Shown here piece by piece: positions 1-22,787 of a stretch of 64,000 nt of DNA (its first letter is position 1; every line of letters starts with the position of its first letter). Below the pieces are notes generated by a model. The model saw only the letters and a program-made list of their open reading frames with translations, did no database searches and was not told where the DNA came from. The DNA comes from Xenorhabdus griffiniae. GTDB lineage: Bacteria > Pseudomonadota > Gammaproteobacteria > Enterobacterales > Enterobacteriaceae. The position numbers and the translations under genes were made by a program. The stretch lies in NCBI RefSeq assembly GCF_037265215.1, contig NZ_CP147737.1, positions 1,302,001 through 1,366,000 of the forward strand, written 5' to 3'.

Positions 1-1011
1 GAATTCAATTCCCCCATTTTGGCGGAAACGCTAAAAGACCATGCCCCGCAGTTCTGGCAATGGCTTAACCGGGCAACAGCCAACTGTGAGAACAAGTTTG
101 ATCGCGTGCTGGCAGCCCTATTTATGGTGCTGGCGAATCGTTACGACTGGCAGTTGTTTCTGGAAATCACTGGCGCCGGAGGCAGTGGTAAAAGCATCTT
201 TGCTGAAATCTGTTCAATGCTGGCGGGTAAAGGTAATACTGTTTCAGCAAGTATGTCTGCATTAGAAATTCCACGGGAACGGGCGTTGATTGTCGGCTAT
301 TCGCTGATTATCCTGCCAGACCAGACCCGCTATGTGGGCGATGGCTCAGGTATTAAGGCCATTACAGGCGGCGATGAAGTGGCTATCGATCCAAAGCATA
401 AACAGCCCTACTCAACCCGCATTCCTGCGGTGGTCTTGGCGGTAAACAATAATGCCATGAGTTTCAGTGATCGCAGTGGTGGTGTATCACGGCGTCGGGT
501 AATCTTCAATTTTTCCGAAGTTGTGCCGGAAAATGAACGTGATCCACTTCTGCGGGATAAAATCGCAGCAGAATTACCCGTGATTATCCGGCATCTGCTG
601 CATCGATTTGCTGATCCACAATCAGCAAGGCGTTTACTGGCAGAGCAACAGAAATCAGATGAAGCGCTGGATATCAAACGCAACACCGATCCATTAGTCG
701 ATTTCTGTGGTTATCTGGTGGCTTCCCATGAAACTGACGGCCTGTTAATCGGTAATGCAGAGATTGTGCCGTTCAATCCCCGTAAGTACCTTTATCATGC
801 CTACCTTGCTTATATGAAAGGCAACAATCTGAATAAACCTGTTTCCGTAACCCGTTTTGGTATGGATATGCCGGGCGCACTGGCGGAGTACAACCAGCAT
901 TACCTGCGCAAGAAAAGCAAATACGGCATTCGCAGCAATCTGAGTCTGGATCTTGATACTGCCATCGAGTGGCTGCCAAAATTGACAAGGGATAACCTAC
1001 CAGAAGAATAA
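1..1011 (+). CDS. P4 alpha-type replication helicase, C-terminal part (5' end outside window)
   Basis: The frame is open to base 1, so the true start lies upstream; the TTG at 19 is only the first possible internal start. The visible part is the superfamily 3 helicase domain of phage P4 alpha-like primase-helicases. It has a Walker A loop GAGGSGKS (about residues 52-59 from the TTG), an acidic Walker B-like stretch ending LPDQ, and the sensor motif AVNNN at about 141. These proteins open and unwind the origin of P4-like satellites and islands. The iterons directly downstream match the GGTGAACAG sequence known to be bound by P4 alpha, so gene and origin form one replication module. The N-terminal primase domain is not in the window and cannot be judged. 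Confidence 0.85.
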   Translation, partial: EFNSPILAETLKDHAPQFWQWLNRATANCENKFDRVLAALFMVLANRYDWQLFLEITGAGGSGKSIFAEICSMLAGKGNTVSASMSALEIPRERALIVGYSLIILPDQTRYVGDGSGIKAITGGDEVAIDPKHKQPYSTRIPAVVLAVNNNAMSFSDRSGGVSRRRVIFNFSEVVPENERDPLLRDKIAAELPVIIRHLLHRFADPQSARRLLAEQQKSDEALDIKRNTDPLVDFCGYLVASHETDGLLIGNAEIVPFNPRKYLYHAYLAYMKGNNLNKPVSVTRFGMDMPGALAEYNQHYLRKKSKYGIRSNLSLDLDTAIEWLPKLTRDNLPEE

Positions 1012-1050
1012 TTCTTTCTGATTACAGACATTTTTCAAAGAAATATAAAA

Positions 1051-1273
1051 AAGTGTTCATTCCTGTTCACTCTATAATTTAAACCAGATATATCAATATA
1101 TTATAGGGTGAATAGTTATTTTTAAACTGTTCACAAGTCTTCACCTCTGTTCACCTTATTTTAGTTTGAGGTGAACGGTTAGGTGAAGAGTGGTGATGAG
1201 TTTTATTTCAAGCTATCATCCTTTAACAATATGAATTTAAACAAAAATATTCAAAGGTGAACAGGGTGAACAG
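1051..1273. other. P4-like replication origin region with GGTGAAC iterons
   Basis: Several copies of GGTGAAC or its complement GTTCAC lie here in both orientations: around 1054-1070, 1127-1134, 1149-1155 and 1170-1176, with two head-to-tail GGTGAACAG units at 1256-1264 and 1265-1273. A related GGTGAAGAG is at 1182. P4 alpha is known to bind GGTGAACAG (type I) iterons, and the alpha-like gene ends just upstream. The origin call is inference from motif and position. Confidence 0.7.
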
Positions 1274-1340
1274 TTTTATCCCTAATTCTTTAATACAGGG
1301 GGTAAGCAAAAAAATTTTCTCTGGAAGGTGTTTTTCAGCT

Positions 1341-1382
1341 CTCCGAGTTACTGGGTTAATGTATTAGCCCGGTAACTCGGAG
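1341..1382. repeat. Conserved 42-nt hairpin downstream of replication module (left copy)
   Basis: CTCCGAGTTACTGGG pairs with CCCGGTAACTCGGAG around the loop TTAATGTATTAG; there is one G-T mismatch in the stem. A second copy with the same loop and compensating stem changes lies at 63851-63892, also just after a replication helicase gene. Both are followed by the same AGAAGACAAGC. No T tract follows, so a simple terminator is unlikely; an origin or control structure fits better. Confidence 0.75.
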
Positions 1383-1865
1383 AAGACAAGCATAGCGCGT
1401 CAGTGTCGCTCTAAGTAGGTTAAAGTGGTTATCAGCAGGAACTATCGATGATAGAGATATGCCCTAATAATGTTGTATACCCGACATAACTCAATGTTTA
1501 GGAACGACGGGAGTACCTGCAAGTTAATGCCCAAGCAATGTATCTACATATACTCTTGTCAGTCAAATTTAAATTTAATTAACAATAACTTCAAAATATA
1601 ATCCAACGCGTTAGGTGTATATCCCAGATAATTTAAATCAGAGATCATAAAATATGTGACCTGAAGATACATCTACATTCCGAATCGTATTCTTAATCCA
1701 TTGTTTTAATTAAAAATTAATATTTACGCAAGTATTATGCAAACGCTTTAAAATCATTGTATTACAGATATCGCTGTGCGGAATAACGGATATATTTTCT
1801 CCTAGCCAATATCAGAAATGCCGTTATCATTTATCAATATTTCATATACAAGATAGAACATTTTT
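1383..1865. other. AT-rich intergenic stretch without a supported gene
   Basis: About 480 bases between the replication module and the RiPP promoter. I find no open frame with a credible ribosome binding site on either strand. It marks the boundary between the island backbone and the biosynthetic cargo. Confidence 0.5.
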
Positions 1866-1893
1866 TTGACAAAAAAACACATTAAATTAACAT
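1866..1893 (+). promoter_or_regulatory. Candidate sigma-70 promoter for the precursor peptide
   Basis: A consensus -35 TTGACA (1866-1871) and a TAACAT -10 (1888-1893) are 16 bases apart, leaving a leader of about 80 bases before the ATG at 1980. A second TTGACA at 1934-1939 has only a poor -10 and lies very close to the ribosome site. Prediction from sequence only. Confidence 0.4.
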
Positions 1894-1979
1894 GAGTTTT
1901 GTTCGCAACATAAAATGTAAAATGGTGCGTATATTGACATTTTTTACACTCTTACAAACATATATAGAAGGAAAATAAA

Positions 1980-2102
1980 ATGGATAAAGCTCAAGAATTG
2001 GAAATTGCTGTAGCCGAACTGAATGCAGAAAATTCCGATGCGGAAAATGAATTGTTGTTAGATATTACAGGTGTAGTTTCCAACAAAGAGTGGCAAGAAT
2101 AA
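1980..2102 (+). CDS. Putative 40-residue RiPP precursor peptide
   Basis: A short ORF with a good ribosome site (AGAAGGA, about 8 bases before ATG). The product begins MDKAQELEIAVAELN and ends GVVSNKEWQE. Residues 1-30 are acidic and helix-prone, as leader peptides are. The last nine or ten residues, after Gly31, would be the core. There is no Cys, and only one Ser (34) and one Trp (38), so any thioamide or oxidative change must fall on the backbone or on Ser, Asn, Lys, Glu, Gln or Trp. The gene is first in an operon of modification enzymes and is followed at once by a strong hairpin, an arrangement typical of precursors that are made in excess over their enzymes. I recognise no known precursor family. 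The core boundary is a guess. Confidence 0.7.
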   Translation: MDKAQELEIAVAELNAENSDAENELLLDITGVVSNKEWQE

Positions 2103-2106
2103 TACT

Positions 2107-2129
2107 ACATGGCCGCGATGCGGCCATGT
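2107..2129 (+). terminator. Attenuator-like hairpin after the precursor gene
   Basis: ACATGGCCGC, loop GAT, then GCGGCCATGT: a perfect 10-bp GC-rich stem starting four bases after the precursor stop. No run of T follows, so it may be a partial terminator or a 3'-end mRNA stabiliser. Either would raise precursor mRNA over the downstream enzymes. Confidence 0.65.
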
Positions 2130-2203
2130 CTAAATCACGACTAAAATTCTTAACCATATAATTTTAATTAAAATTAGTTTTTCATCTAAAAACAGACTTT
2201 AAT

Positions 2204-3292
2204 ATGAGCAATATTATGGGTGATATTCAAGATGTTGAAACAATAACAATTAATGCATTAAAAGAACTTAATAGCTTTCTATTGGTGGATGTTCGGGAAA
2301 GCCATGAATTTGCTAATGGCACAATTCCCGGAGCATTAACCCTAGGACGAGGTTTTTTGGAAATTGAGCTAAAAAACAGACAAGTTGAACTAGATCATCC
2401 AATTGTTTTGTTTTGTGCTAGTGGGCTTCGTTCAAAATACGCTGCATTGGGCTTAATTGCACTGAATTTCGTTAATATATATTCTCTTGAGGGTGGTTTC
2501 GAAGCATGGAAAGCAGGAGGTAATTCTGTAGAACAACCCTCCACAATCTTAAGCCAAACCGAGAAAAACCGATATGCGCGTCATATCTCCTTAAAAGATA
2601 TTGGACTTCATGGACAATTAAAAATCATGAAGTCTAAAATACTGGTCATTGGAGCAGGGGGACTAGGTTCATCTTGTCTGCTTTATTTGACAGCCGCTGG
2701 GGTAGGTGAAATTGCCATTGTTGATCACGATATCGTCGATTTAGGTAACCTACAACGGCAAGTTATCCATAATGAAACGATGTTACAAAAGAAAAAAGTT
2801 GAATCAGCCCTTCATACGCTAAAAGCATTAAATTCTGGCATCAAAATAAAAATCATAGATGTTGCCATTAATATCAAGAATATTCAGCCTATTCTGGAGG
2901 ATTACGATATAATCATCGATTGTACAGATAACTTTAATGCTCGTTATGCGATAAATGATGCTGCAGTAAGGGCAAATAAACCATTAATTTCTGCTGCCGT
3001 ACAACGATTTACAGGCCATGTAATGGCACGTACTCAACCTTATTCTCCTTGCTACCGCTGTATCTACCCCGAAGCTCCACCAACAACTTTGTCCCCCTCA
3101 TGCTCTGAGAATGGTGTAGTTGGAATTATTCCAGGTATTTTAGGATTACATCAGGCAAATGAAGCATTGAAAGTTATTCTAAATATAGGTGATACATTAG
3201 ATGGAAAGCTATTGAAACTTGATTTGTTAAATAATAAATATCAATTATTAGTGACCAAGAGACGCACTGACTGTTTGTGTCAAAACCAATAA
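2204..3292 (+). CDS. Rhodanese-E1 (ThiF/MoeB-like) sulfur-activating fusion
   Basis: Residues about 10-108 are a rhodanese domain with active-site loop CASGLR (Cys71). Residues about 120-362 are an E1-like adenylyltransferase with the nucleotide loop GAGGLGSS (150-157), the IDCTDN motif, a CYRC pair and a C-terminal CLC consistent with a zinc site, and the SCSENG segment where MoeB/ThiF proteins carry a conserved Cys. The family adenylates the C-terminal Gly of a ubiquitin-like sulfur carrier and then loads sulfur on it. The next gene encodes such a carrier. The rhodanese is at the N terminus, whereas in MOCS3/MoeZ it is C-terminal. A housekeeping thiamine or molybdopterin role is possible but the context argues for dedicated sulfur supply to YcaO/TfuA. 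The ATG at 2204 lacks a strong ribosome site; ATG 2216 is an alternative. Confidence 0.85.
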   Translation: MSNIMGDIQDVETITINALKELNSFLLVDVRESHEFANGTIPGALTLGRGFLEIELKNRQVELDHPIVLFCASGLRSKYAALGLIALNFVNIYSLEGGFEAWKAGGNSVEQPSTILSQTEKNRYARHISLKDIGLHGQLKIMKSKILVIGAGGLGSSCLLYLTAAGVGEIAIVDHDIVDLGNLQRQVIHNETMLQKKKVESALHTLKALNSGIKIKIIDVAINIKNIQPILEDYDIIIDCTDNFNARYAINDAAVRANKPLISAAVQRFTGHVMARTQPYSPCYRCIYPEAPPTTLSPSCSENGVVGIIPGILGLHQANEALKVILNIGDTLDGKLLKLDLLNNKYQLLVTKRRTDCLCQNQ

Positions 3293-3310
3293 ATAATTGA
3301 AGGAATTAAT

Positions 3311-3571
3311 ATGATTACTATATCATTTCCTGAATCTGTTAGCGGAAATAGACAGATTATTATCTCAGCAAATAATCTTTATGAAATATTAAAAGAGATG
3401 CAGGAGAAACATATCGATATTTTTTCTTTGATTGCGATATCTAAAGACGATAATCTTAAACTTAAACCTTTCGTTACTCTTTTTATAAATAATGTCATGT
3501 CAGTAGAGAGTAATCCTTCATTAAATGATGGTGACATTTTGTCTTTTGAAATAGCTATTTCAGGAGGATGA
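3311..3571 (+). CDS. ThiS/MoaD-like sulfur carrier protein
   Basis: 86 residues with the beta-grasp pattern of MoaD/ThiS and the required C-terminal Gly-Gly (ends AISGG). In this family the terminal glycine is adenylated by an E1 partner and converted to a thiocarboxylate, the sulfur donor. The E1-rhodanese gene is 18 bases upstream. The two Gly codons and the flanking bases (TCAGGAGGATGA) also form the ribosome site for the next gene at 3573, so translation of the two is probably coupled. It is longer than Escherichia coli ThiS (66 residues) and about the size of MoaD. Confidence 0.85.
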   Translation: MITISFPESVSGNRQIIISANNLYEILKEMQEKHIDIFSLIAISKDDNLKLKPFVTLFINNVMSVESNPSLNDGDILSFEIAISGG

Positions 3572-3572
3572 A

Positions 3573-4157
3573 ATGGATGCTAAGTTATTACAAAAAGCCT
3601 ACGTATCACTACTATATAGTGATCATTGTTGTATTACAGGTGCGGAAAAAGAGTATCATTATATCCATTCTACAATGGATCACGACAGACTGGTAGTTGA
3701 GCGGGCTGCTCGTCGCAGAAATTTACGTACAGTACTTTATGCAGATATGCATTTTTCTCCACGCTTTTTTAGTAAGGATTTTTTCCTTAAGCTTGTAAAT
3801 TTATATTGTGATTCGGATAGTTTCTGGAATTGGAATAGTAGAACATTGATTGAAAGCTTTTGCTATTTTGTTTATACAAATGCAGATTTGATGGAAGAAG
3901 AAAAAATTCCTTTTCTTATTGATGGTATTTATTCTGGCATTTCTACCGGAATGACAAACTCACCATGGAGTTCTACAATTTCCAGAAATAATGAAAAATC
4001 CATAACAGAAGAAATTAACTGTGATCGTTATTTTACTCTATCTAAATTAGATACAATAAACTCTCTCAAGGAAATAATTTTTAAAAATAAATTAGCTAAG
4101 CTTCGCTTTCATAACGAAAGTGGCAAAGTGGCATTATCCTGTCGGGAGGTTGTATGA
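3573..4157 (+). CDS. Unknown protein, candidate partner of the MNIO-like oxidase
   Basis: 194 residues, soluble, rich in aromatic residues, with no signal peptide or membrane segment. I recognise no named domain. Features include HYIHSTMDHD near residue 32 and a basic ERAARRRNLR stretch near residue 48. Its stop overlaps the start of the DUF692/MNIO-like gene (ATGA at 4154-4157), the arrangement seen for oxidase-partner pairs such as MbnB-MbnC and TglH-TglI, where the partner binds the substrate leader. Its size is close to MbnC. The partner role is inference from position and size; there is no motif to prove it. Confidence 0.5.
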   Translation: MDAKLLQKAYVSLLYSDHCCITGAEKEYHYIHSTMDHDRLVVERAARRRNLRTVLYADMHFSPRFFSKDFFLKLVNLYCDSDSFWNWNSRTLIESFCYFVYTNADLMEEEKIPFLIDGIYSGISTGMTNSPWSSTISRNNEKSITEEINCDRYFTLSKLDTINSLKEIIFKNKLAKLRFHNESGKVALSCREVV

Positions 4158-4987
4158 ATGCACGAGTAGGGTTAGGAATTGATTATACACATAATTATGG
4201 TTATGACTTAACTAAATTATTACAATTAGCGCAAAACGGAATTAGTCATTTATCTGTCGTGGCCATACCTAATGAGGATGTTGCACAAGCTTTTCGTAAT
4301 AAATATCCTCAATATCCTATCATTCATCATTTTTCTGGAATGGAGCCAGCAGGTATTGATGGATTACGCTCTGATGTGCTTGTAAGGCAAAATGCCATTA
4401 GTGAGACTCTCCAGGCATACTGGTGTCTGGAAGATATCGGTATCTGGAATATTGGCCCTTACAACTTACCTTATTTTGCTGCGCCAGTACTTTGTGAATC
4501 CGTTCTTTCTATGGCAATTGAAGGTGTGAAAACGATTCAGTCTGTTTCCAGTATTCCTTTTTCTGCGGAAATACCTTCTTTCAGCATTGTTGCAGGAGAA
4601 ATGGCTTTAGGTGAGTTTTTCCATCGGCTAGTTGATGCGACAGACTGTAATATTGTTTTAGACATCAGCCACGTATTTTCATATGCCATTTATTGTGATC
4701 TACAGCCACCGGATGTATTAGCTAGCCTTCCATTGACCTCAGTGAACGAAATTCATATTGCTGGGGGGAGTGTACACCCAAACCATTCATGGAGATACCG
4801 TGATACACACTCAGAACCAATTGTTGATAGTGTTTTCCCACTGTTGGAACAGGCACTAGCTCAGTGCCCAAATCTGAAAGCTGTGACATATGAGTTAGGG
4901 GTGGGAATTACTCCAATTGTGATCCGTACAGATTTACAGAATATTGAAGATATTTGTCAACGAATGGCGTTTATCCCTTCATTCTGA
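4154..4987 (+). CDS. DUF692/MNIO-family-like multinuclear iron oxidase
   Basis: 277 residues with the TIM-barrel landmarks of DUF692 proteins (MbnB, TglH): AEIPSF near 135 in place of the usual ENxSSY, LDISHVFSYA near 170 in place of LDxxNxY, NEIHIAGG near 200, and RDTHSEPIVD near 220, which matches the metal-binding DTHxxPV segment. These enzymes use two or three iron ions to rearrange Cys, Asp or Asn side chains or backbone in peptides. The precursor here has no Cys, so the chemistry would differ from methanobactin or 3-thiaglutamate formation. The N-terminal GIDYTH segment differs from the usual GxRxxH, so this is a distant member. It is translationally coupled to the upstream unknown gene. 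Confidence 0.75.
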   Translation: MNARVGLGIDYTHNYGYDLTKLLQLAQNGISHLSVVAIPNEDVAQAFRNKYPQYPIIHHFSGMEPAGIDGLRSDVLVRQNAISETLQAYWCLEDIGIWNIGPYNLPYFAAPVLCESVLSMAIEGVKTIQSVSSIPFSAEIPSFSIVAGEMALGEFFHRLVDATDCNIVLDISHVFSYAIYCDLQPPDVLASLPLTSVNEIHIAGGSVHPNHSWRYRDTHSEPIVDSVFPLLEQALAQCPNLKAVTYELGVGITPIVIRTDLQNIEDICQRMAFIPSF

Positions 4988-5041
4988 ATAAACAAACAGA
5001 GCTGATAATCAGGTTGTTGCAAATTTAAAGGTAATGAGTAT

Positions 5042-8000
5042 ATGGAAAATGATAAAACATCTATTCTTCTTATCGATAGTGCTAAAAAAAATCAGTTATC
5101 CAAGCTTAATGACGTTTCTCAACAGAATAATTTACATAATCATACCGCTAAAATCGCTAATATTTTATCACAAATACCTTTTCCATGGACAACACAAGTC
5201 TCTCTGGATTTAATATCAGCCAGCTACTTGGATGCGTTTGAGCAAGGATATTCAGAGTTGCGCACTCATATATATGAGCGTTTTGGCATCTGCCCTATAG
5301 AAGCACATGCATACTCTCTGCCAGAGAATGAATATATTACAGATATTCATACCTCATTATCTACATTCCATGATAAAGCACTAGCTCCTTATGTTTTGGC
5401 TTCTGTAGGCCATGATTTTGGTCGCCAGCGTTTTCCTGGGTCATGCAGTGAAACTATTGGCGTAGGATTATTATGCCATAATGGCAGTATTCCAGGTATG
5501 ACGCCTTTAGGATGGGGTAATATCGAGTTTTTGGTCAAAGAATGTGACTATTCCACCTACGACGAACAAGGGGCACTAACCACAACAAAAGGTACCTCTG
5601 CGGCAGTAGTCTATCTCGCCAGTCTGGCTGGAAAACTTCATTCGTGGCTAAAAAGAAATCAAATGGTCTATGATCGCCATGCTTTACATGCAGCCATGAT
5701 TTGCATGAGCCAAGCATTTCAAGGTAGATATCTTTTTGATGATGTATCAGAGCAAAAATGTATGCCTCAAACATGGAGTATTCCTTTGAAGCGTTCGAAG
5801 GAAGCAGAAATACTGCTTACGCTTACTCCAAACACATCCGTCAGAAACAATCAAATTGCATTGGTCGTTTCTTATCAAGCGTCCATTGCCAGACAAACAC
5901 GCCTGACAACCGTAGTCAATGGTCAAGAAATTGTAGGGCAAAGAGGTACATTATTAATACCAGCTCATTTGCTTGAAAAATCCCCCCTTAATATTACAGT
6001 ATACGCTGTAGGACGTCTCGATCATGTGACAGTGGCATGTCAGAACACACTGGTAATGAAATGTATTAGCTCGCAACTACTTGTCGCGCCTGACGATGAA
6101 ATTATTGTTGGTATCTCTGCAAGTCACGATGCTTCTGCTTGTGTGATGATTAACGGAAAAATTCGTTATGGAATTCAGCTTGAGCGTTTAACCCGTGTCA
6201 AACACGATGGAAGCCAATCCCTCAATACTACTTTAGCTGTAGATTATTGTCTGAATGCCGCTGGTTTAATGCGGGAAGATGTAAGCTGTTTTGCCTATAA
6301 TATTCAATCAGTGACTCCGGAGTATATCGGGCTAAATCAGCCTGTTTGTAGTACAGATTTTTCGTTGTTTGATCCCTTCTCTCCAGAGGCTATAGTTGTT
6401 AGCCATCATCTGTGTCACGCATTTGCCGCTTGGTCGGGGTCAAAGTTTTCCAGAGGAAATGTAGTGGTAGCGGATGGTTCCGGAGGTAGTGTCGTAGGAC
6501 AAAATGATTTACTCATCTCTGGGCAAGAGTTTTCTGAGTATTTAAATGCTGGACTTAAAGAGTATAAACCGGAATTGCATGTAGTTTCTCATTATACCTT
6601 TTGTGAAAATGGATATACGCTGCTAGCCCGTGAATACAGCCCATCATTTAATATTCGAACTGGAAGTCGCTCATTGGGTGAGGCTTATGCCTCTGTGAGC
6701 CAACTTGTTTTTAATTCTTGGCACGCTTCTGGAAAATTAATGGGGCTTGCACCTTATGGTATACCAAAATTTGCTGAGGAGATTGCGATTGAAAGCCCGC
6801 AGGGTATTTCTTTTGGTTATACTTGGAAGCAAAAATTTAGCAAGAAAACACTTAACGTGATGGATTACGCAGATCTGGCCGCTTCGGTACAACTCGTTCT
6901 GGAAAAAGGGATTTTTTCTCGCTTAGAGCATTACCACATAACTAATAATGAACCTCTTGTCATGACAGGAGGTGTTGCTCTAAATTCTGTAGTGAACTAT
7001 AAGGTGCGTCAGAACTTTCAATTACGTGATTTCTATTTATTCCCAGCTCAACATGATGCTGGTATTTCTATCGGTGCCGCTAATGCTGCTTATTATAAAA
7101 GGCATAACCGAATTCTTAGTGATGCTTTTAATCACGATTATCTGGGAAAAGTTTACAGATATGAAGATATTTCCAGAGCCCTTAACTTATTTGCTGATAG
7201 GGTAATAGTGAAACCTATTGATACTGTTACACTAGCCGAACGGTTACATGCGGGACAGATCATTGGTTACTACTCCTGTACTAAAGGGTCTGAATTTGGT
7301 CCACGTGCGTTGGGTGCCCGTTCAATACTAGCTAGCCCTTGCTCGATGGATACATGGAAATTCATCAATCGCTGGGTGAAGTTCCGTGAGGATTTTCGTC
7401 CTTTTGCGCCGATGGTTGCTACTGAGCACCTAGGTCGTTATTTCGAAGGTGAAGGTGACTATAAATATATGCTTGAAGTGCTGCCAGTTCGTCCTGAATA
7501 CCGGGAGCAACTTGCCGCTATCACGCATATAGATGGTTCAGCACGTGTACAAACAGTGTCTGTCAATGATAATGAAGAAATCCATGCTTTGCTCTCCGCA
7601 TTTGGCAAACTTTCTGGATTTCCCGTTTTACTGAATACATCGTTTAATGTTCGTGGAAAACCTATCGTAGAACGGGCAGAACAGGCAATCGAAATGTTGC
7701 TTTCCACCCATATTGATGCGGTGGTATTCGGTGACTATATAGTCGAACTATTCGCTCCATCGTTTACTCCAGAAGTAGTTCCAGGATTGTTATGTTTGAG
7801 CCCTGGTTGTAGCTTAAAAAGCAGTCTAGAGAAAAATCAACTGCGTCATATAATAAGCCACGAATACCAAGATAATAATCAAATTATTACTGCCTCGCTA
7901 TATCAGGCTCTTTTACTATTAGTGAAGCAAATGTCTCTGGCGGATACCCAAGCTGTATATGATGAGTTAAGCCCTGAGCTAAGGAAAGCAGTGATGCACT

Positions 8001-8074
8001 ATGTTCGATTGAAATTTCTTAATATTGCACGTGATTTTACTGAGGAATTTGAGTGTGACGATCTCCATCACTGA
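5042..8074 (+). CDS. Subtilase-carbamoyltransferase fusion protein
   Basis: 1010 residues in two parts. Residues 1-about 230 resemble a compact subtilisin-like protease: ILLIDSA (Asp12), a His34 segment aligning with HGTHVAGI, ASVGHDFG near 120-127, PGSCSETIGVG near 132, and GTSAA with Ser186. The usual oxyanion Asn in GN is His124. Residues about 354-935 are a NodU/TobZ/CmcH-type O-carbamoyltransferase: GISASHDASA, SHHLCHAFAAW (454-464), VADGSGG, GLAPYG, TGGVALN, HDAGISIGAA, GPRALGARS, REDFRPFAP and LNTSFNVRGKP. That family moves carbamoyl from carbamoyl phosphate via carbamoyl-AMP to hydroxyl or amine groups. Between them lies a beta-rich linker. A likely role is leader removal plus carbamoylation (Ser34 of the precursor is a possible acceptor). 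I know no described fusion of this kind. There is no signal peptide, so it should act in the cytoplasm. Confidence 0.8.
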   Translation: MENDKTSILLIDSAKKNQLSKLNDVSQQNNLHNHTAKIANILSQIPFPWTTQVSLDLISASYLDAFEQGYSELRTHIYERFGICPIEAHAYSLPENEYITDIHTSLSTFHDKALAPYVLASVGHDFGRQRFPGSCSETIGVGLLCHNGSIPGMTPLGWGNIEFLVKECDYSTYDEQGALTTTKGTSAAVVYLASLAGKLHSWLKRNQMVYDRHALHAAMICMSQAFQGRYLFDDVSEQKCMPQTWSIPLKRSKEAEILLTLTPNTSVRNNQIALVVSYQASIARQTRLTTVVNGQEIVGQRGTLLIPAHLLEKSPLNITVYAVGRLDHVTVACQNTLVMKCISSQLLVAPDDEIIVGISASHDASACVMINGKIRYGIQLERLTRVKHDGSQSLNTTLAVDYCLNAAGLMREDVSCFAYNIQSVTPEYIGLNQPVCSTDFSLFDPFSPEAIVVSHHLCHAFAAWSGSKFSRGNVVVADGSGGSVVGQNDLLISGQEFSEYLNAGLKEYKPELHVVSHYTFCENGYTLLAREYSPSFNIRTGSRSLGEAYASVSQLVFNSWHASGKLMGLAPYGIPKFAEEIAIESPQGISFGYTWKQKFSKKTLNVMDYADLAASVQLVLEKGIFSRLEHYHITNNEPLVMTGGVALNSVVNYKVRQNFQLRDFYLFPAQHDAGISIGAANAAYYKRHNRILSDAFNHDYLGKVYRYEDISRALNLFADRVIVKPIDTVTLAERLHAGQIIGYYSCTKGSEFGPRALGARSILASPCSMDTWKFINRWVKFREDFRPFAPMVATEHLGRYFEGEGDYKYMLEVLPVRPEYREQLAAITHIDGSARVQTVSVNDNEEIHALLSAFGKLSGFPVLLNTSFNVRGKPIVERAEQAIEMLLSTHIDAVVFGDYIVELFAPSFTPEVVPGLLCLSPGCSLKSSLEKNQLRHIISHEYQDNNQIITASLYQALLLLVKQMSLADTQAVYDELSPELRKAVMHYVRLKFLNIARDFTEEFECDDLHH

Positions 8075-9209
8075 ATTAGGGTTTCGCCGTTACTCTACCC
8101 GAGAGGCACTGAAATTAATTTTACCATTACGTAAGAAACTGGGAATCTCGCGCTTAGCTTCTGTTGGTGAATTTGTGGATATTGCTGGCATCAGTATAGT
8201 AAATGCAGTTCGTACTACATTGAAAAAAGGACAAATATCAACCACCCAAGGAAAAGGGCGAAATCTATATACAGCCACCTGTAGCGCATTAATGGAGGCC
8301 TATGAACGCCACTGTGCTTGTTGGTGTGATGATCTGATTGTTCACCAAAATACGCATTATTATGACCGTCTCATACAGCGGCAACTGGGATTTGATCCAG
8401 AGTATGATATCAAAGACTGGATACCAGGATACGAGTTGCAAACTGGAAAAGAAATTTTATTACCTGCTGTAGAAGTACAGTTTCCTTATCATGGTTCGGA
8501 TGCTCAACGGGTAAATATACACGCTCACACCTCGGGACTGGCGTGTGGTGGCACCTTAGAAGAAGCGATCTGTTTTGCTATATTAGAATCCTTTGAACGC
8601 AATATTACATCCCGATTTTACCAAAACTGTTTATCGAGTATTTGTGCAGATATTATAGATCCTGAAAGCATCAATTATCCGTCGACAAAAGCTTTATGGC
8701 AATCGTTATCTGACAAAGGGTATGAAAGTTTCGCCTTACGTATCCACGGTACGATACCGACTTATTATGTAGCTTTATACGATCCAACCAATATGGGACC
8801 AAAATTTATGGTTGCCGGTTCCGCCTCTGGATTTACTGAAACACTAGCTCTGGATGCTGCACTAATGGAAGCAGTTCAGGGGCTAGTAGTCTGTTTACAG
8901 GCTTCACGAGAAGATTTAAGCCGTCAGCAGAAAAAGTATGATGATAAGAACTTCTTTAATCATTCACGTTTCTACGTACTGCGCGAATTATTTCGCAAGC
9001 ATTATAAAATGGTGAATATATCGACTGAGCAGAATGTCCCGATAGCACTGGCTTCTGCTACCGAGTTTTTAATCCAAAAGCTAGCGGAGGAAGGAAAGGA
9101 ACAGATTTATATCACGGATTTATCTCTGCCCGATGTACCTTTTCATACGGTAAAAGCTATTATTCCAGGGCTATTTGATTGGCATGTTAATCCGGGAAGG
9201 AGGAAATAA
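8055..9209 (+). CDS. YcaO-family peptide backbone-modifying enzyme
   Basis: 384 residues from GTG 8055, chosen because GAGGA lies 8 bases upstream; a TTG at 8025 would add ten residues and has no ribosome site. It overlaps the end of the fusion gene by 20 bases. YcaO hallmarks are the ATP/Mg motifs SALMEAYERHC near residue 80 and GTLEEAICFAILESFERN near 175. YcaO enzymes phosphorylate amide oxygens with ATP to make azolines, amidines or thioamides. There is no attached or adjacent azoline E1/ocin-ThiF-like or dehydrogenase domain. With TfuA next to it and a sulfur carrier in the operon, thioamide formation on the precursor backbone is the best inference. The C-terminal PGR stretch is not the PxPxP tail of azoline-forming members. 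Confidence 0.85.
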   Translation: MTISITELGFRRYSTREALKLILPLRKKLGISRLASVGEFVDIAGISIVNAVRTTLKKGQISTTQGKGRNLYTATCSALMEAYERHCACWCDDLIVHQNTHYYDRLIQRQLGFDPEYDIKDWIPGYELQTGKEILLPAVEVQFPYHGSDAQRVNIHAHTSGLACGGTLEEAICFAILESFERNITSRFYQNCLSSICADIIDPESINYPSTKALWQSLSDKGYESFALRIHGTIPTYYVALYDPTNMGPKFMVAGSASGFTETLALDAALMEAVQGLVVCLQASREDLSRQQKKYDDKNFFNHSRFYVLRELFRKHYKMVNISTEQNVPIALASATEFLIQKLAEEGKEQIYITDLSLPDVPFHTVKAIIPGLFDWHVNPGRRK

Positions 9210-9212
9210 ATC

Positions 9213-9878
9213 GTGCTATTTGCTCGTAAACAAAAACCAGTTGTATTTGGTGGTTCTTCCTTACCCTGTGATCAGCGTTATGACGCAATAATTGAATTTC
9301 GCCCACCAATCCAGACAGGAGATTTACTGGAGCTGTCAGGAAGTGGTCGGCCGGTTCTGATTACAGATGGCCTTTTTGGTAGCAATATGTCGATTACTGT
9401 AGTGGAGTGCTTAAATTTTATCAACGCAGGAGGAATACTACTCGGTAGTTCCAGCATGGGAGCATTGCGCGCTGCAGACTGCTACATTCAAGGAATGGTA
9501 GGAATAGGGCAAATATTTCAGGGATATCTATTCGGGTATTATCACTCAGATGCAGATGTGGCTCTGCGATATCACACGGATAATTATCAGGAAATCACGC
9601 TCTCTTATGTGCATATAGAATATATTGCTTGCTATCTGATGGCAGAAGGGCAGATAAGTTCACTACAAAAACGTCAGATGATGGCTTTGGTACGACAAAT
9701 CATTTGGTACGAGCGCTACATTGATCGGGTGATTGATGCCATGCTTAAGATTGCTCCACATTTAGATATAGCGCAGCTGCGTTCTTTATTTAAAAACGAC
9801 ACTATGCACCCTAAAAAACAAGATGCCAGATTAGCAATAGATTATTTAGTGAAATTTTATTTGGCCAAATGTGAGTAA
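9213..9878 (+). CDS. TfuA-like protein, YcaO partner
   Basis: 221 residues with the TfuA core: ITDGLFG near residue 50, GGILLGSSSMGALRAADC near 75-92, and the DADVALRYH stretch near 112. TfuA proteins pair with YcaO in thioamide biosynthesis (thioviridamide-type peptides and methyl-coenzyme M reductase) and are thought to help deliver sulfur. GTG 9213 has a strong ribosome site (GGAAGGAGG) and starts 3 bases after the YcaO stop, so the two are co-translated. In this locus the sulfur source could be the ThiS-like thiocarboxylate from the upstream genes. Confidence 0.85.
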   Translation: MLFARKQKPVVFGGSSLPCDQRYDAIIEFRPPIQTGDLLELSGSGRPVLITDGLFGSNMSITVVECLNFINAGGILLGSSSMGALRAADCYIQGMVGIGQIFQGYLFGYYHSDADVALRYHTDNYQEITLSYVHIEYIACYLMAEGQISSLQKRQMMALVRQIIWYERYIDRVIDAMLKIAPHLDIAQLRSLFKNDTMHPKKQDARLAIDYLVKFYLAKCE

Positions 9879-9884
9879 TAAGAA

Positions 9885-11219
9885 ATGAAAAATCAAAATT
9901 GGTTAAAAAACATTGGTTATTTAGATAGCATATCGCGTGCAATGCAATCAACATCAAATCAAATTAGTCATTTATTAGTAGGAAGCTTAGGTGGTATGTT
10001 TGGTACAGCGGTTTCATTACGTGTTTCTATTGCATTCTATTCATCTCTCTTCCTTGAAGTCCCTTCTGGATTGCTGGCTGATAGATTAGGTCATTTTAAA
10101 ACAGTTGCTTTAGGGAACTGGTTTAATGCTATTGCCCTGCTTGTATTGTACTGGTCACTCGCAACGGCAGATAATATCGATAATCAAATTACATTACTTA
10201 TTATCAGTTCTTTTTTAAGTGCCATCGCGATGTCTTTGATTTCTGGTGCTTATCAAGCAATGTTACAGGATTTGATTGATTATCAAATCATTAAACATGG
10301 TGAAGAACGCACTCTACGTACAAAAGCACTTCTGCTTTCTCAACGATATGGTAAAGAAATTGTTTCTATCGTTCCTGTTCTTTTTTTATTGCTATTATTA
10401 GTGCTTTACCGGACTATAGGACATGCTGAAATTATATTATTTATTCCAACTATAATGTTTATTGGTTTAGGAATATGGCTATGGTGTTTTCCTCAGTTGA
10501 ATGGTATGCATGAAAATCTCGGAAAGCAGAACGCTCACATCAGGCGTAAAAGTACATTACGTCACTTTATTGTATATATGCGTGAATTATCACATACTCA
10601 ATGTTTGATTTTTTTGAAACTTTCTATAGTAATAATTCTTCTAAATTTCTCTATGATTCATGTTCACACTTATCTCATGATTTCTGAATTCAGAGAATAC
10701 AATATAATGCAGGTTGAAAGAGCTTATCTAATTCTTTTGTTTTTGTTTATTATATCATTTGATGTAGCTCATTATATTAAAGGTGTGATAGTTCCACGTG
10801 TAGCCGCAAAGTTCTCAGATAATACGATGATTATGATTTCTTTCGTCAGTTTGATGATACTCTCAGGATTTTGTTATCTTCTTTATCTTTATTTCAATGG
10901 CATTTTAGCATTAATTTTGTATATTTTGTTTTTTAGAACGACCGTGACTATTGGTCAAGACGTGGCGATCAGTAATTTTCTTGCCCGCTTACCTGAGGAA
11001 ATCCGAGCTTTTTCTTTGAGTCTCGCAACAGGTACTGTAATTATATTATATGGTGCTTATTCTGTCTATTTAACCTTTGCTGGTATTGGTGCAGAGCCTG
11101 CACCATATATCTTGTTAGAAATAGCAGTGATTGCACTGATAGGAGGACTTTTGACGTTCTATATAAAAATCACCCCACAAATAGATACTGAAAACCCTGC
11201 TTTGCAATCAAGAAATTAG
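9885..11219 (+). CDS. MFS transporter, probable exporter of the modified peptide
   Basis: 444 residues with about twelve hydrophobic segments and the major facilitator loop motif GLLADRLGHFKT after helix 2. It follows the TfuA gene by 6 bases and is the last gene of the run that begins at the precursor. No ABC exporter or leader-cleaving C39 protease is present, so this pump would carry a small, already processed product, which agrees with a cytoplasmic protease domain in the fusion protein. Substrate and direction are inference. Confidence 0.8.
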   Translation: MKNQNWLKNIGYLDSISRAMQSTSNQISHLLVGSLGGMFGTAVSLRVSIAFYSSLFLEVPSGLLADRLGHFKTVALGNWFNAIALLVLYWSLATADNIDNQITLLIISSFLSAIAMSLISGAYQAMLQDLIDYQIIKHGEERTLRTKALLLSQRYGKEIVSIVPVLFLLLLLVLYRTIGHAEIILFIPTIMFIGLGIWLWCFPQLNGMHENLGKQNAHIRRKSTLRHFIVYMRELSHTQCLIFLKLSIVIILLNFSMIHVHTYLMISEFREYNIMQVERAYLILLFLFIISFDVAHYIKGVIVPRVAAKFSDNTMIMISFVSLMILSGFCYLLYLYFNGILALILYILFFRTTVTIGQDVAISNFLARLPEEIRAFSLSLATGTVIILYGAYSVYLTFAGIGAEPAPYILLEIAVIALIGGLLTFYIKITPQIDTENPALQSRN

Positions 11220-11404
11220 CTATAATTTTTGACTATGTTTCAACTAATTTATAGAGTATGACAATAGCCTGTTCTTTATCGCCTTTAATATTTAAGTATA
11301 TATTTTGTCTTGAGGAACTATTTTATTATGACTATTTATTTTACTAATTAATTTTACATAACTCTAGTAACCATCCTTAATTACGCAATTAATAGGAAAG
11401 TATT

Positions 11405-11965
11405 ATGCATAAAAGTAATTATATTACATCATTTAGTACCAAACAAATGGATGTTCACTACATCAATGAAGAAATGGCTAATGCCTTTCAGAAATATTTG
11501 GTGAATAATAAAGATAGATTAGCACCATTTGAGCCATTAAGGACTTGCGAATATTACGAATTAAATGAAGTGAAAAAGCGTATTCGATCAACTGTGAATC
11601 TGCAAGAGGAAAATAAAGGAGTTTCACTTGTATTTACTCTAAAAAATTCATCAGATATAGTTGGAAATATCAATTTTACTAATTTCGTTTTTGGGGTTTT
11701 TCAAGCATGCCACCTTGGTTTCTCAATTGATACTGATTTTGAGGGTAAAGGTGTGATGCGTGAAGTTTTAACTGAATCATTAAAACATATCAGAAATAAA
11801 TATCAACTACATCGCGTAATGGCTAATCACCTTACAACTAATGATAGATGTGCTCATTTATTACAACGAGTTGGATTTATTAAAGAAGGTTATGCCAAAT
11901 CATATCTTAAGATAAATGGAGTATGGCAAGATCATGTATTGAATTCTTTTGTATTTGAAGATTAA
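11405..11965 (+). CDS. RimJ/RimL-like GNAT N-acetyltransferase
   Basis: 186 residues, about the usual length. The acetyl-CoA loop is FEGKGVMREVL near residue 115 and HRVMANHLTTNDRCAHLLQRVGF follows in pieces typical of RimJ (substrate-side N and the LLxRxGF helix). These enzymes acetylate N-terminal amines, and some give self-resistance to peptide antibiotics. It lies 185 bases beyond the MFS gene on the same strand. A self-immunity role for the upstream RiPP is plausible but not shown; it could be an independent housekeeping-type gene. Confidence 0.75.
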   Translation: MHKSNYITSFSTKQMDVHYINEEMANAFQKYLVNNKDRLAPFEPLRTCEYYELNEVKKRIRSTVNLQEENKGVSLVFTLKNSSDIVGNINFTNFVFGVFQACHLGFSIDTDFEGKGVMREVLTESLKHIRNKYQLHRVMANHLTTNDRCAHLLQRVGFIKEGYAKSYLKINGVWQDHVLNSFVFED

Positions 11966-12047
11966 TTATAATTATTTTTTCAATGTAAAAATCACACATG
12001 TTGGTTTTCCCAAAGCAATTAGTATTTCTTAATTTTGGAGTGATATA

Positions 12048-12671
12048 ATGTTAAAATCACAAAGTATCATTGTAATCGATGATTTTTATGATAATCCCAT
12101 TGAGATCAGAAAGCATGCACTTTCACTTGATTATAAACAAAAAAATGGAGCTACGTATCCAGGAATGGAGGCTACATCTGAACGAAATTGGGATGTAGTT
12201 AGAAATACTCTCATGTCATACATAAATGAAGATGTCAGTGCCCCCTGTCCTAAGTCGGATGGATTTGCACAGGGAAAATTTCGTATTGCTGTTGCAAATG
12301 ATAATAAAAAACGTCTAGATAATGTCCATGTAGACCAACAGAAATATTCAGGAATTATATATCTAACACCTAACATTCTTTGTCAAGGAGGGGTTGCTTT
12401 TTATAAACATAAAAAAACAGGAGAGGTTTTTTTTAATAAAACTGTAATTCAAAGTAAAGGATTTCCTACCGTTGGCGATGATTTTCATAAGAGAGTTCTT
12501 TCGTACTTTAAGGATGATAATAATTGGGATAAAATTGGTGAAATTCCAATGCGATTTAATCGCGCTGTAATTATTATGGCCAGAGTGTTTCATGGATCCA
12601 CTGGAATTTTTGGTGACTCTATGGAAACTGGTAGATTAACTCAACATTTCGAATTTTATACCTATGACTAA
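12048..12671 (+). CDS. DUF6445-like 2-oxoglutarate/Fe(II) oxygenase-fold protein
   Basis: 207 residues. The sequence has the facial-triad pattern of this fold: HVD (His94, Asp96), a distal His182 in FHGSTG and Arg196 in TGRLTQHFEF, which could bind the co-substrate carboxylate. The N-terminal IDDFYDNPIEIRKHAL is also typical of DUF6445 proteins, often found in secondary-metabolite loci. The ribosome site is TTGGAGTG. It is the last gene before the inverted repeat, so it may belong to the RiPP locus as a further tailoring enzyme or stand alone. The substrate is unknown. Confidence 0.65.
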   Translation: MLKSQSIIVIDDFYDNPIEIRKHALSLDYKQKNGATYPGMEATSERNWDVVRNTLMSYINEDVSAPCPKSDGFAQGKFRIAVANDNKKRLDNVHVDQQKYSGIIYLTPNILCQGGVAFYKHKKTGEVFFNKTVIQSKGFPTVGDDFHKRVLSYFKDDNNWDKIGEIPMRFNRAVIIMARVFHGSTGIFGDSMETGRLTQHFEFYTYD

Positions 12672-12844
12672 TAAATATTAGTTTTATTGAATTTTTTCAT
12701 CATGAAAATATAATCAAGCTATCGATGCTAATTTAATAAAAATGGTGTGTAGTGGAATGATAATCTTGAAAGACCAAAAGTCTGTTAAGATTATTAACAA
12801 AAGCTAAGTCATTTTCATCAAAAAATAATGGTGCTTTTTCCACT

Positions 12845-13580
12845 CCCCATCATTGAACAAAGATTTGACCCCGCTCGATTCAATCGATAAAGTATTTAAT
12901 TGTTATCAATGATCCATAGCCTGCAAGGATCAGCATTAAGCGGCGAAACAAAACTCCCGTAGCCTGAAAGGGAGAGCAAAATTTGCGGTACATCTGCACA
13001 CTTTTGGAAGCAGATATCGTCGAAAAAATAACCCAGTGTATCGATGATGAAAGTTTCCCGGTTTCTTTATGCACCGGCTTATCACACACGTTGAGCAGTC
13101 CCCCCTGCCACGTTCGCTATAACAATTTTACTCTGTACGATTTTTATCCACACCTTGACTAACGTACAATAAACGTCCCGAAAACTTCGCGGCGTCACTT
13201 GCGTTAAAGCGAAGCGATTACCAAGTGACGCCGCCGGCGGCCAACGTCCAGAGCACGTCCGGTCTGGCTTTACTAACGATTTGAACCCCGTTTTACTCAG
13301 TGTCACCACTTTTCATTGGCATTTTTCTGCCTTAATTCACTTATTTCGTTTTTTTCACCCACTGCCTTGCAACAGGCCGATGCAGTAAAGAAAGGAGATA
13401 TCACACGTCACGAATAATGAGGCGTTCATCCTGATTGAATCAGGCGCTGAACGGGGAGTAAACCATCGCCGTGCCTAGCATGCACGTAGCGAACTCCTGC
13501 AAAAACTCAACACAATGCTCTCTCTGCTACACATTATCTGACGCACCACGGAACGGTGAACCTAACCGACACGCAGAGAA
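12845..13580. repeat. Long inverted repeat, left arm
   Basis: This non-coding stretch reappears in reverse complement at about 22788-23545. Shared segments in mirrored order include GAACAAAGATTTGACCCC, TTAATTGTTATCAATGATC, the ACTCCCGTAGCCTG stem, GGAAGCAGATATC, the GTGACGCCGC palindrome and AACGGTGAACCTAACCGACA. Identity is high but not perfect, so the copies are not a recent duplication. The open frames inside are not kept between arms, so it is probably not coding. Confidence 0.85.
13189..13234. other. 13-bp palindrome within the left arm, oriT-like candidate
   Basis: GCGGCGTCACTTG pairs with CAAGTGACGCCGC across a 20-base spacer. The same palindrome occurs in the right arm at 23146-23191. 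Conserved, non-coding, strongly structured DNA near a relaxase-like gene could be a transfer origin, but there is no nick-site consensus I can name. Confidence 0.4.
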
Positions 13581-13992
13581 TGTTTCGAAATGTATAAAAA
13601 TAGCCTGAAAATCAAAGGGAAAATGCGGACAGCGAAACGATCACGAACCAGAATAAACAACAAAGATTGATTTAGCCGTCCGTATTCTCCCCTGAGTTTG
13701 TGCGCTCATGAGAGGAGTTATAGCCGTTACACTTAGCCGTTCAGTTATTGAGTAAGCTAAAACAATCAGTTAAAGTATTCCCGCCATTGGCAAAATCCGA
13801 TGGTCGGGGATTCGCAACCCTGTAATGATCAACCCACTGGTAGGATGTTTCTGCCAGTGCGCCTGTGTTCGCCTTTTCTATGGCGGTTCAGGTGGGGGAG
13901 GCTTTGGCCTCGCCGGATTGGTTGATCTCCGGTATTGCGAACCCTGCTTGAATCGCCACCATCAATATTAATTAATGGAAGGGGTAGCAGGA
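13581..13992. other. Non-coding region before the Ner-like gene
   Basis: About 410 bases with no supported gene. It contains GC-rich repeated phrases around 13800-13950 (GATTCGCAACCCTG at 13810 and GTATTGCGAACCCTGCTTGA near 13932) of the sort found upstream of regulators on P4-like and ICE elements. It probably holds the regulator's promoter and operator. Confidence 0.4.
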
Positions 13993-14265: not shown

Positions 14266-14460
14266 CCTGCTGTAATTTGTGATCTATGTCGTAAAATGAA
14301 CATTTTTTATCTTAAGCCCTGAGCGTAAAATGGCAGCCCAATTTGACCATTTTTAACCCTCACGGCTTTTTTGCTTTAAGATGATTTAAAAGCACATAGG
14401 TAGCGATATAAATAATAAAAATCAGTCAGATATAGAAGAAAAAGCAAACAAAAAAACTTA

Positions 14461-22722: not shown

Positions 22723-22787
22723 TCTCGCCTCTCCTGCTGCTTTGCTTGTGTTTTATTCATTTTTTGAGTCGTTTTTAAAACAATTCC

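What the first reader, a model, noticed from the sequence alone, without database searches (positions are those of the whole stretch)
1980..11219. Undescribed-looking RiPP locus: MNIO-like oxidase, YcaO/TfuA, ThiS-E1 sulfur relay and a protease-carbamoyltransferase
The sequence shows a 40-residue peptide gene with an attenuator-like hairpin, then genes for a rhodanese-E1, a Gly-Gly sulfur carrier, an unknown protein plus DUF692/MNIO-like enzyme, a subtilase-carbamoyltransferase, YcaO, TfuA and an exporter, all on one strand with short gaps or overlaps. Each family is known singly in peptide modification; I know of no described pathway that joins all of them. Predicted product: a short, Cys-free C-terminal peptide with thioamide(s), an oxidative rearrangement and a carbamoyl group.
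Basis: partly seen in the sequence, partly recalled or inferred. Interest (0 to 1): 0.92.

Follow-up and report, generated by a model that had tools for sequence, protein, structure and literature searches.

The report
Mobile thioamide–homocitrulline peptide gene cluster
This stretch of DNA, probably from a nematode-associated Xenorhabdus bacterium, holds a set of adjacent genes that matches a recently posted pathway and is predicted to turn three residues of a 40-residue peptide into an unusual sulfur- and urea-bearing product; two further genes that recur beside it in other bacteria likely add another oxidation and protect the producer.

Summary
The 40-residue ORF ends in SNKEWQE, the motif of the std RiPP family reconstituted in vitro in a May 2026 preprint (PMC13174530): YcaO-TfuA thioamidates Asn, an S8 peptidase–carbamoyltransferase makes homocitrulline from Lys and removes EWQE, partner+MNIO dihydroxylates it. 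The window is a member.

Added here:
(1) The cluster extends to 12671. A RimJ/MccE-like GNAT lies beside 12 of 13 std loci compared; a DUF6445 protein beside 6; the four Dickeya loci carry an Asp/Asn hydroxylase instead.
(2) The 86-residue protein is a CysO/MoaD-type sulfur carrier with invariant C-terminal Gly-Gly (8 of 13 loci); sulfur likely reaches TfuA-YcaO through an E1–rhodanese relay.
(3) A Piscinibacter plasmid cluster keeps SNK, but its follower is replaced, its protease motifs are gone, and carbamoyltransferase is fused to YcaO.
(4) One Pseudomonas keeps only a broken precursor tail and an intact GNAT, suggestive of immunity.
(5) The 11.8-kb unit (97.5% identical) occurs in 2 of 29 same-genus genomes, in different surroundings beside integrase genes.

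Product, third oxidation and immunity are untested.

The parts
1980..2102 (+). stdA-type precursor, 40 aa: leader 1-33, core S34-N35-K36, follower E37-W38-Q39-E40 (split taken from the std paper)
   Evidence: exact SNKEWQE C-terminus; 100% identical in G014, 77.5-82.5% in four Dickeya; dN 0.105-0.133
2107..2129 (+). hairpin between precursor and enzymes, likely limiting read-through or stabilising the precursor mRNA (role inferred)
   Evidence: 10-bp stem, 3-base loop; 0 of 300 mononucleotide shuffles as stable
2204..3292 (+). E1-rhodanese fusion (MoeB/ThiF-like), predicted to thiocarboxylate the sulfur carrier
   Evidence: PF00899 1.1e-73, PF00581 1.3e-16; rhodanese CxSGxRS loop, GAGGLG and CxxC/CxC cysteines kept in 8 of 8 aligned
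3311..3571 (+). divergent CysO/MoaD/ThiS-type sulfur carrier ending Gly-Gly
   Evidence: G85 G86 invariant in 7 of 7; AF2 pLDDT 87; Foldseek top hits CysO, MoaD, SAMP1; the 3 profile-vs-PDB hits at E<=1 are all this family, E 0.022-0.46
3573..4157 (+). StdD-type MNIO partner protein
   Evidence: tblastn 62-67% in Dickeya, 27-41% outside Dickeya and the own genus; the RRE is taken from the paper, not tested here
4154..4987 (+). StdE-type MNIO, predicted homocitrulline beta/gamma bis-hydroxylase
   Evidence: PF05114 7.4e-23; 39-77% to MNIOs of std loci outside the own genus
5042..8074 (+). StdF-type S8 peptidase-like domain fused to NodU-like carbamoyltransferase
   Evidence: Carbam_trans_C 5.6e-59, Carbam_trans_N 3.5e-25; His and Ser motifs by alignment, not by Pfam
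8025..9209 (+). StdG-type YcaO (true start probably 8049 or 8055)
   Evidence: PF02624 1.2e-43; start codons
9213..9878 (+). StdH-type TfuA
   Evidence: PF07812 1.2e-23
9885..11219 (+). MFS exporter, at the position of StdI
   Evidence: PF07690 1.7e-9; tblastn matches in Dickeya and Pseudomonas, none in the Streptomyces or Sandaracinus loci
11405..11965 (+). RimJ/MccE-like GNAT, likely self-immunity
   Evidence: homolog beside 12 of 13 std loci; PDB: RimJ 3igr 1.8e-34, MccE 3r95 6.4e-5; lone intact copy beside a broken precursor in L102
12048..12671 (+). DUF6445 protein, predicted 2OG-Fe(II) oxygenase
   Evidence: PF20043 2.2e-16; H94-x-D96, H182, R196 invariant in 5 of 5; homologs in 6 of 13 loci, between B and C in L084 and L091 and overlapping tfuA in L130
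12888..13543 (+). STAXI-like (12888-13033) and EFASI-like (13405-13543) RNA segments at the edge of the shared unit
   Evidence: both below Rfam gathering scores: 31.1 of 40.5 and 50.4 of 51.2 bits
1803..13600 (.). 11.8-kb unit shared with G014 at 97.5% with unlike flanks
19..1011 (+). phage/satellite-type DNA primase segment directly upstream
   Evidence: phrog_864 DNA primase 5e-94

Best explanation
Window 1980-12671 is a std-family RiPP gene cluster whose 40-residue precursor ends in SNKEWQE, and its enzymes are predicted to thioamidate the Asn, carbamoylate the Lys to homocitrulline, cut off EWQE and dihydroxylate the homocitrulline, with a likely extra oxidation and a likely acetyl-transfer self-protection step.

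Steps. (1) Inferred: the rhodanese domain of the E1 protein loads sulfur, the E1 domain adenylates the Gly-Gly tail of the 86-residue carrier, and the carrier thiocarboxylate feeds TfuA. (2) By homology to StdGH (shown in vitro elsewhere): YcaO-TfuA makes the Asn thioamide. (3) By homology to StdF: Lys becomes homocitrulline and EWQE is removed. (4) By homology to StdDE: the partner-MNIO pair adds beta and gamma hydroxyls. (5) Inferred: DUF6445, a 2OG-Fe(II)-type oxygenase, adds one more oxygen, most likely on the Asn or Ser, because Dickeya clusters carry an Asp/Asn hydroxylase there instead. (6) Inferred: a host protease removes the leader and the MFS protein exports the small peptide. (7) Inferred: the GNAT acetylates the free amine of product that re-enters or is freed in the cell, as MccE does for microcin C.

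The unit moves between genomes with integrase-bearing elements (shown: one near-identical unit in two different surroundings; the route is inferred).
For: Core: identical SNKEWQE terminus, and D, E, F, G, H in the same order as in the S. thermodiastaticus locus whose chemistry was shown in vitro. Of 19 stretches holding the motif in the genome-contig collection (84,980 species genomes), 7 have std enzymes beside it.

Sulfur: carrier fold and invariant GG; E1-rhodanese motifs.

Extra oxidation: DUF6445 in 6 of 13 loci, PF05118 hydroxylase in the four Dickeya loci.

Immunity: GNAT beside 12 of 13 loci; in 11 of 13 genomes searched the best match lies at the std locus (10) or at the relic (1); lone GNAT beside a broken precursor in a genome where no StdF was found.

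Core/follower: the Piscinibacter precursor keeps SNK but not EWQE, and its StdF lacks the His and Ser motifs.

Mobility.
Against: No product, expression or enzyme of this locus has been seen. In the regions fetched the carrier is absent from 5 of 13 loci and the E1 from 3, including the biochemically studied S. thermodiastaticus locus, where Na2S was supplied; so the relay is not essential to the chemistry as such. The window's MFS gene gives no match in the Streptomyces or Sandaracinus loci. The DUF6445 model is poor (pLDDT 48) and no convincing PDB relative was found; its assignment rests on a recalled motif. The GNAT tree does not show one std clade; in the three Streptomyces and in Sandaracinus the GNAT is on the strand opposite to tfuA; Sandaracinus has a closer GNAT elsewhere; and similar GNATs stand apart from any std gene on Rahnella and Pantoea plasmids, so the family is not exclusive to std loci.
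Confidence: 0.82

Rival explanations
1. The GNAT is a tailoring enzyme: it N-acetylates the finished peptide as part of biosynthesis, or it acetylates a ribosomal protein as RimJ does, rather than giving immunity.
For: Closest solved relative is RimJ; thiovarsolins A and B, thioamidated tripeptides, are N-acetylated (PMC6511847 passages); the GNAT gene overlaps DUF6445, which overlaps tfuA, in Piscinibacter.
Against: An intact GNAT survives beside a broken precursor in a Pseudomonas without the biosynthetic genes, which a pure tailoring enzyme would not be expected to do; similar GNATs stand apart from std genes on plasmids.
Confidence: 0.35
2. The E1-rhodanese and carrier do not serve thioamidation; StdGH takes free sulfide and the pair makes something else or is left over.
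For: StdGH worked with Na2S in vitro (PMC13174530); the three Streptomyces, the Sandaracinus and the Piscinibacter loci lack the carrier.
Against: B and C lie between precursor and MNIO in all 8 loci that have both; archaeal TfuA is reported to hydrolyse thiocarboxylated ThiS (as cited); each of the three Streptomyces genomes has a single E1 match in a 398-aa frame (the one tested, of S. barringtoniae, scores as MoeZ) that could stand in.
Confidence: 0.12
3. The product is a signal, metal ligand or host-directed factor and not an antibacterial; the GNAT then only modifies it.
For: Biological activity is unknown for the whole family (PMC13174530); carriers live in varied settings (Steinernema-associated Xenorhabdus relatives; soil Piscinibacter; Dickeya on plants, recalled).
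Against: The immunity-like remnant in Pseudomonas; an exporter gene in the operon; cargo of mobile DNA.
Confidence: 0.35
4. The locus is decaying cargo and makes nothing.
For: Patchy distribution (2 of 29 same-genus genomes); a relic exists in one Pseudomonas.
Against: All frames open; between the two carriers the precursor is identical, B to I are 98.6-100% and GNAT and DUF6445 97.3-97.6% identical; low dN against high dS on the precursor.
Confidence: 0.04

Closest known systems
std cluster of Streptomyces thermodiastaticus JCM 4840 (Hebron et al., bioRxiv May 2026, PMC13174530)
   Same: SNKEWQE precursor; partner+MNIO; S8 peptidase-carbamoyltransferase fusion; YcaO; TfuA in the same order; an MFS gene after TfuA
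   Different: Window has its own E1-rhodanese and sulfur carrier between precursor and partner (not found within the 20 kb fetched around the Streptomyces locus), a DUF6445 protein (none found there), an MFS protein and a precursor leader that give no tblastn match to the Streptomyces locus, and lies in mobile DNA
TfuA / thiocarboxylated ThiS sulfur delivery to YcaO (Liu et al. 2021; not held here, cited in PMC8153245 and PMC13063428)
   Same: TfuA, YcaO and a Gly-Gly carrier encoded together
   Different: Here the carrier is a divergent CysO/MoaD type with an operon E1-rhodanese, in a bacterial RiPP cluster; no biochemistry done
Microcin C self-immunity acetyltransferase MccE (PDB 3r95; PMC9239234 passages)
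   Same: GNAT encoded with a small modified-peptide cluster; detectable sequence similarity (E 6.4e-5)
   Different: Closer to RimJ (1.8e-34); substrate unknown; no aminoacyl-nucleotide here
Thiovarsolins (PMC6511847 passages)
   Same: YcaO-TfuA thioamidated tripeptide, N-acetylated
   Different: APR core; no MNIO, carbamoyltransferase or sulfur carrier mentioned in the passages I read

Membership tests
std RiPP family | precursor with C-terminal SNKEWQE | tested here: met
std RiPP family | MNIO with partner protein encoded next to each other | tested here: met
   tblastn to the S. thermodiastaticus locus: D 39% over 71 residues, E 41% over 275
std RiPP family | S8 peptidase domain fused to NodU-like carbamoyltransferase | tested here: met
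   (protease part by motif alignment; Pfam reports none)
std RiPP family | YcaO-TfuA pair | tested here: met
std RiPP family | thioamidated Asn, dihydroxyhomocitrulline, loss of EWQE | not testable with these tools
   needs mass spectrometry
ThiS/MoaD/CysO sulfur carriers | beta-grasp fold with C-terminal Gly-Gly | tested here: met
ThiS/MoaD/CysO sulfur carriers | thiocarboxylation by the cognate E1 | not testable with these tools
2OG-Fe(II) oxygenases (for DUF6445) | HxD...H iron ligands and a 2OG-binding Arg (motif recalled) | tested here: met
   H94, D96, H182, R196 invariant in 5 of 5
2OG-Fe(II) oxygenases (for DUF6445) | double-stranded beta-helix fold | tested here: inconclusive
   AF2 pLDDT 48, so no fold search; no convincing PDB relative
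MccE-type immunity GNATs | GNAT family protein encoded with the peptide cluster | tested here: met
MccE-type immunity GNATs | one clade shared by all std clusters | tested here: not met
   tree splits them; so I say 'works like', not 'is an MccE'
MccE-type immunity GNATs | acetylates and inactivates the cluster's product | not testable with these tools
   -

The most novel reading that the evidence does not exclude
std loci are portable three-residue weapon cassettes: the SNK core is fixed, while the follower and the protease that cuts it change together (Piscinibacter has lost both EWQE and the protease motifs and has fused carbamoyltransferase to YcaO); a swappable 2OG-type oxygenase (DUF6445 or an Asp/Asn hydroxylase) adds a third hydroxyl next to the thioamide; a CysO-like carrier relay supplies the sulfur; and a RimJ/MccE-like acetyltransferase is the immunity gene, which bacteria keep after the factory is gone.
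Probability: 0.35. Interest if true: 0.72.

Novelty: new variant of a known kind. Interest (0 to 1): 0.5.

Why it matters
The std chemistry (homocitrulline in a RiPP, thioamidated Asn) was reported only in 2026, with leader protease, mature product and biological activity stated as open, and with Na2S as the sulfur source in vitro. The comparison made here names candidate genes for what is missing: a sulfur relay (B, C), an extra oxygenase (DUF6445 or PF05118) that would change the mature product, and an immunity gene (GNAT) that points to an antibacterial role. Each can be tested by adding one protein to an existing in vitro system or by removing one gene. A short, heavily modified peptide with its own resistance gene on mobile DNA would be a new kind of small antibacterial.

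Tried and rejected
Rejected: a wholly undescribed pathway (PMC13174530 describes it). Chance ORF. Phage or defence function: the MNIO has no match in phage records, and of seven proteins only the E1 matched PADLOC models (32 families, the 25 listed are all E1-E2). Uniting all std GNATs in one clade: the tree says no. Naming B and C as 'StdB/StdC': the paper's main text never mentions StdB or StdC, and no E1 or carrier was found within the 20 kb fetched around the S. thermodiastaticus locus.

Led nowhere: the search for homologous proteins failed four times. The MNIO search over 274 genomes of the class gave, besides the own gene, weaker MNIOs (best 33% identity), whose surroundings I did not examine. 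Window 2204-4987 has no match in the E. coli genomes. The DUF6445 fold model was too poor to search. The MNIO partner finds nothing in plasmids by tblastn. No tRNA was found in the window or in the four flanking loci scanned, so no attachment site was found. I first took a join in G014 for an empty site and dropped it, because the matching stretches look like primase-type genes.

Rows dropped before counts: of the 19 motif stretches, 12 without a std gene in the stretch held (5.1-8 kb, not extended, some matches near an edge). In 7 of these the motif is followed by TGG, not a stop; in the other 5 it ends an open stretch of 7-17 codons. The 13-locus set = window, L089, four Dickeya (L083, L099, L100, L101), L084, L091, L130, L088, L085, L086, L087; the relic L102 is counted apart. 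These are about seven lineages, not 13 independent cases. The final HMM counts used profiles built partly from the same loci; the tblastn calls are the independent evidence.

Papers: PMC13174530: abstract, introduction, results, discussion, conclusion, start of methods and figure legends read; supplement not seen. PMC6511847, PMC5589413, PMC13063428, PMC8153245, PMC8120280, PMC9239234: passages only. Liu et al. 2021: not held, seen only as cited. Statements on what is or is not in print rest.


Full report
What is there. The precursor reads MDKAQELEIAVAELNAENSDAENELLLDITGVVSNKEWQE.

It is a std cluster. A full-text search found one paper with MNIO, YcaO, TfuA and carbamoyltransferase together: PMC13174530. 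It describes the S. [quoted passage not shown] It is the only paper of the library with that motif. The window shares the motif letter for letter, and its D, E, F, G and H match that locus in the same order by tblastn; its MFS protein and precursor leader do not match. The chemistry of the window is therefore inferred by homology.

Distribution. The motif was scanned over the genome-contig collection (84,980 species genomes): 19 stretches, of which 7 lie beside std enzymes (Sandaracinus MAG, Pseudomonas fluorescens PfR 37, Dickeya undicola, Burkholderia sp. TSV86, three Streptomyces); the other 12 show no std gene in the stretch held. The viral collection gave one match, inside a long frame. 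Within genera: 4 of 9 genomes of the Dickeya genus, 2 of 398 drawn from the genus of the Pseudomonas locus (one of them a relic), 1 of 65 from that of the Burkholderia locus; each count includes the genome searched from. The reversed pattern gave 0 in the rows of all three searches. A plasmid of Piscinibacter gummiphilus adds one more. Burkholderia sp. TSV86 has A, B, DUF6445, C, D, E and then about 1.3 kb without F before its contig ends, and no StdF fusion was found in that genome as held.

The cluster is longer than reported. GNAT 11405-11965 and DUF6445 12048-12671 have homologs beside std genes in other bacteria. GNAT: 12 of 13 loci (all but the incomplete Burkholderia one); in the three Streptomyces it lies downstream on the opposite strand, and in Sandaracinus DUF6445 and GNAT run convergently to the std genes. 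DUF6445: 6 of 13 (both same-genus genomes, Pseudomonas, Burkholderia, Piscinibacter, Sandaracinus). In Pseudomonas and Burkholderia it lies between B and C; in Piscinibacter it overlaps tfuA and the GNAT gene. All four Dickeya loci instead have an Asp/Asn beta-hydroxylase (PF05118; 2 of 4 scanned, all 4 by tblastn at 80-100%) after the GNAT. Neither was found in the three Streptomyces loci. DUF6445 keeps H94-x-D96, H182 and R196, the ligand pattern I recall for 2OG-Fe(II) oxygenases. Two unlike families of this type at one position suggest one more hydroxylation, perhaps on the core Asn; this is inference. The term DUF6445 occurs in no paper of the library.

Sulfur. The 86-residue protein passes no Pfam cut-off, but seven relatives, itself included, end in an invariant Gly-Gly, its model is good (pLDDT 87), and the best folds are CysO of Amycolatopsis, MoaD, mycobacterial CysO and SAMP1. 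The E1 keeps the rhodanese Cys loop and the E1 motifs in 8 of 8. E1-rhodanese and carrier are both present in 8 of 13 loci; Piscinibacter has the E1 only; S. barringtoniae has an E1-rhodanese nearby that scores as MoeZ and is the only E1 match in that genome at E 1e-8. S. thermodiastaticus and S. eurythermus also have a single E1 match each (398-aa frames), on contigs other than the cluster's, and Sandaracinus has an E1-rhodanese match on another contig. So proteobacterial clusters likely bring their own relay and the others likely borrow the host's. TfuA using thiocarboxylated ThiS is prior knowledge, ThiS-like genes beside tfuA in Actinobacteria were noted in 2019, and rhodanese genes beside archaeal ycaO-tfuA in 2017.

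Core, follower and protease. In Piscinibacter the precursor ends ...GLSNKARQKPW: SNK stays, EWQE is gone. Its StdF lacks the His motif and the GTSxA Ser motif where the S8 domain should be, and is fused in one frame to YcaO (L130 9218-13534, 1438 aa by my reading; the record annotates a start at 10196, which would leave out the S8 remnant). This agrees with the paper's split of SNK (core) and EWQE (follower, presumably cut by the S8 domain). Sandaracinus has a second precursor ending SSAKEWQD beside the SNKEWQE one.

Immunity. The GNAT is RimJ-like and more weakly MccE-like. In 11 of 13 genomes the best match to it lies at the std locus (10) or at the relic (1); the exceptions are Sandaracinus and Burkholderia. 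In the relic (G658) a broken precursor tail ending SNKEWQE is followed by a hairpin and an intact GNAT, 113 of 179 residues identical to that of P. fluorescens, with no other std gene found in the 20 kb fetched and no StdF fusion in the genome. Loss of the factory with retention of the GNAT fits immunity. Against a simple story: the std GNATs are not one clade, and 52-53% identical GNATs on Rahnella and Pantoea plasmids have no std gene within 6 kb.

Regulation. A strong hairpin follows the precursor. In 13 loci tested (12 with enzymes plus the relic; Piscinibacter not tested) it beat all 300 mononucleotide shuffles in 9 (the two same-genus loci are identical here) and nearly all in 3 (3, 5 and 10 of 300 as low); Sandaracinus was unremarkable (41 of 300).

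Mobility. Full-length StdF occurs in 2 of 29 same-genus genomes, own included, and in none of the 70 others searched with them. Window 1803-13600 matches G014 at 97.5% and that match stops at both ends. In G014 two recombinase genes and an IS110 transposase lie to the left and an integrase to the right. In the window a primase segment lies directly upstream, and STAXI, EFASI and C4 RNAs and integrase genes lie downstream. The host is probably Xenorhabdus: the only plasmid matches of window 1-14500 are three Xenorhabdus records; the genome itself is unnamed.

Verdict. A new member, in an expanded form, of a family posted in 2026; core chemistry likely as published; sulfur relay, added oxygenase and immunity are testable predictions.

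Noticed in passing
window 23877-41090 (-): NRPS-type cluster with chorismate-binding enzyme, SHMT, AMP-binding/condensation/PCP domains, thioesterase, MFS and an AlkZ-like DNA glycosylase; a DAHP synthase lies at 42430-43239. The glycosylase suggests self-resistance to a DNA-alkylating product (inference from recall).
   Followed up: no
window 48365-55061 (+): T6SS TssF, a VgrG-like spike, a VRR-NUC effector candidate and a TsiV immunity protein in a row.
   Followed up: no
window 55416-58667 (-): Inverse autotransporter with Ig-like/invasin repeats.
   Followed up: no
window 12783-13585 and 22778-23609: Inverted copies (75% identity over 843 columns) carrying STAXI/EFASI-like RNAs frame the C4 RNA, a repressor-type gene and an integrase gene: nested mobile elements.
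   Followed up: partly
window 18473-18874 and 18873-19274: A perfect 402-base tandem duplication.
   Followed up: no
window 61968-62192 (-): Weak tblastn match (28%, E 6e-4) to the Dickeya Asp/Asn hydroxylase.
   Followed up: no
L088 13097-13309 (-): Sandaracinus has a second std-type precursor ending SSAKEWQD, an Ala in place of the Asn that is thioamidated in StdA.
   Followed up: no
G000:C1:2503898-2504674: A second MNIO (PF05114, E 1.5e-69) elsewhere in the own genome.
   Followed up: no
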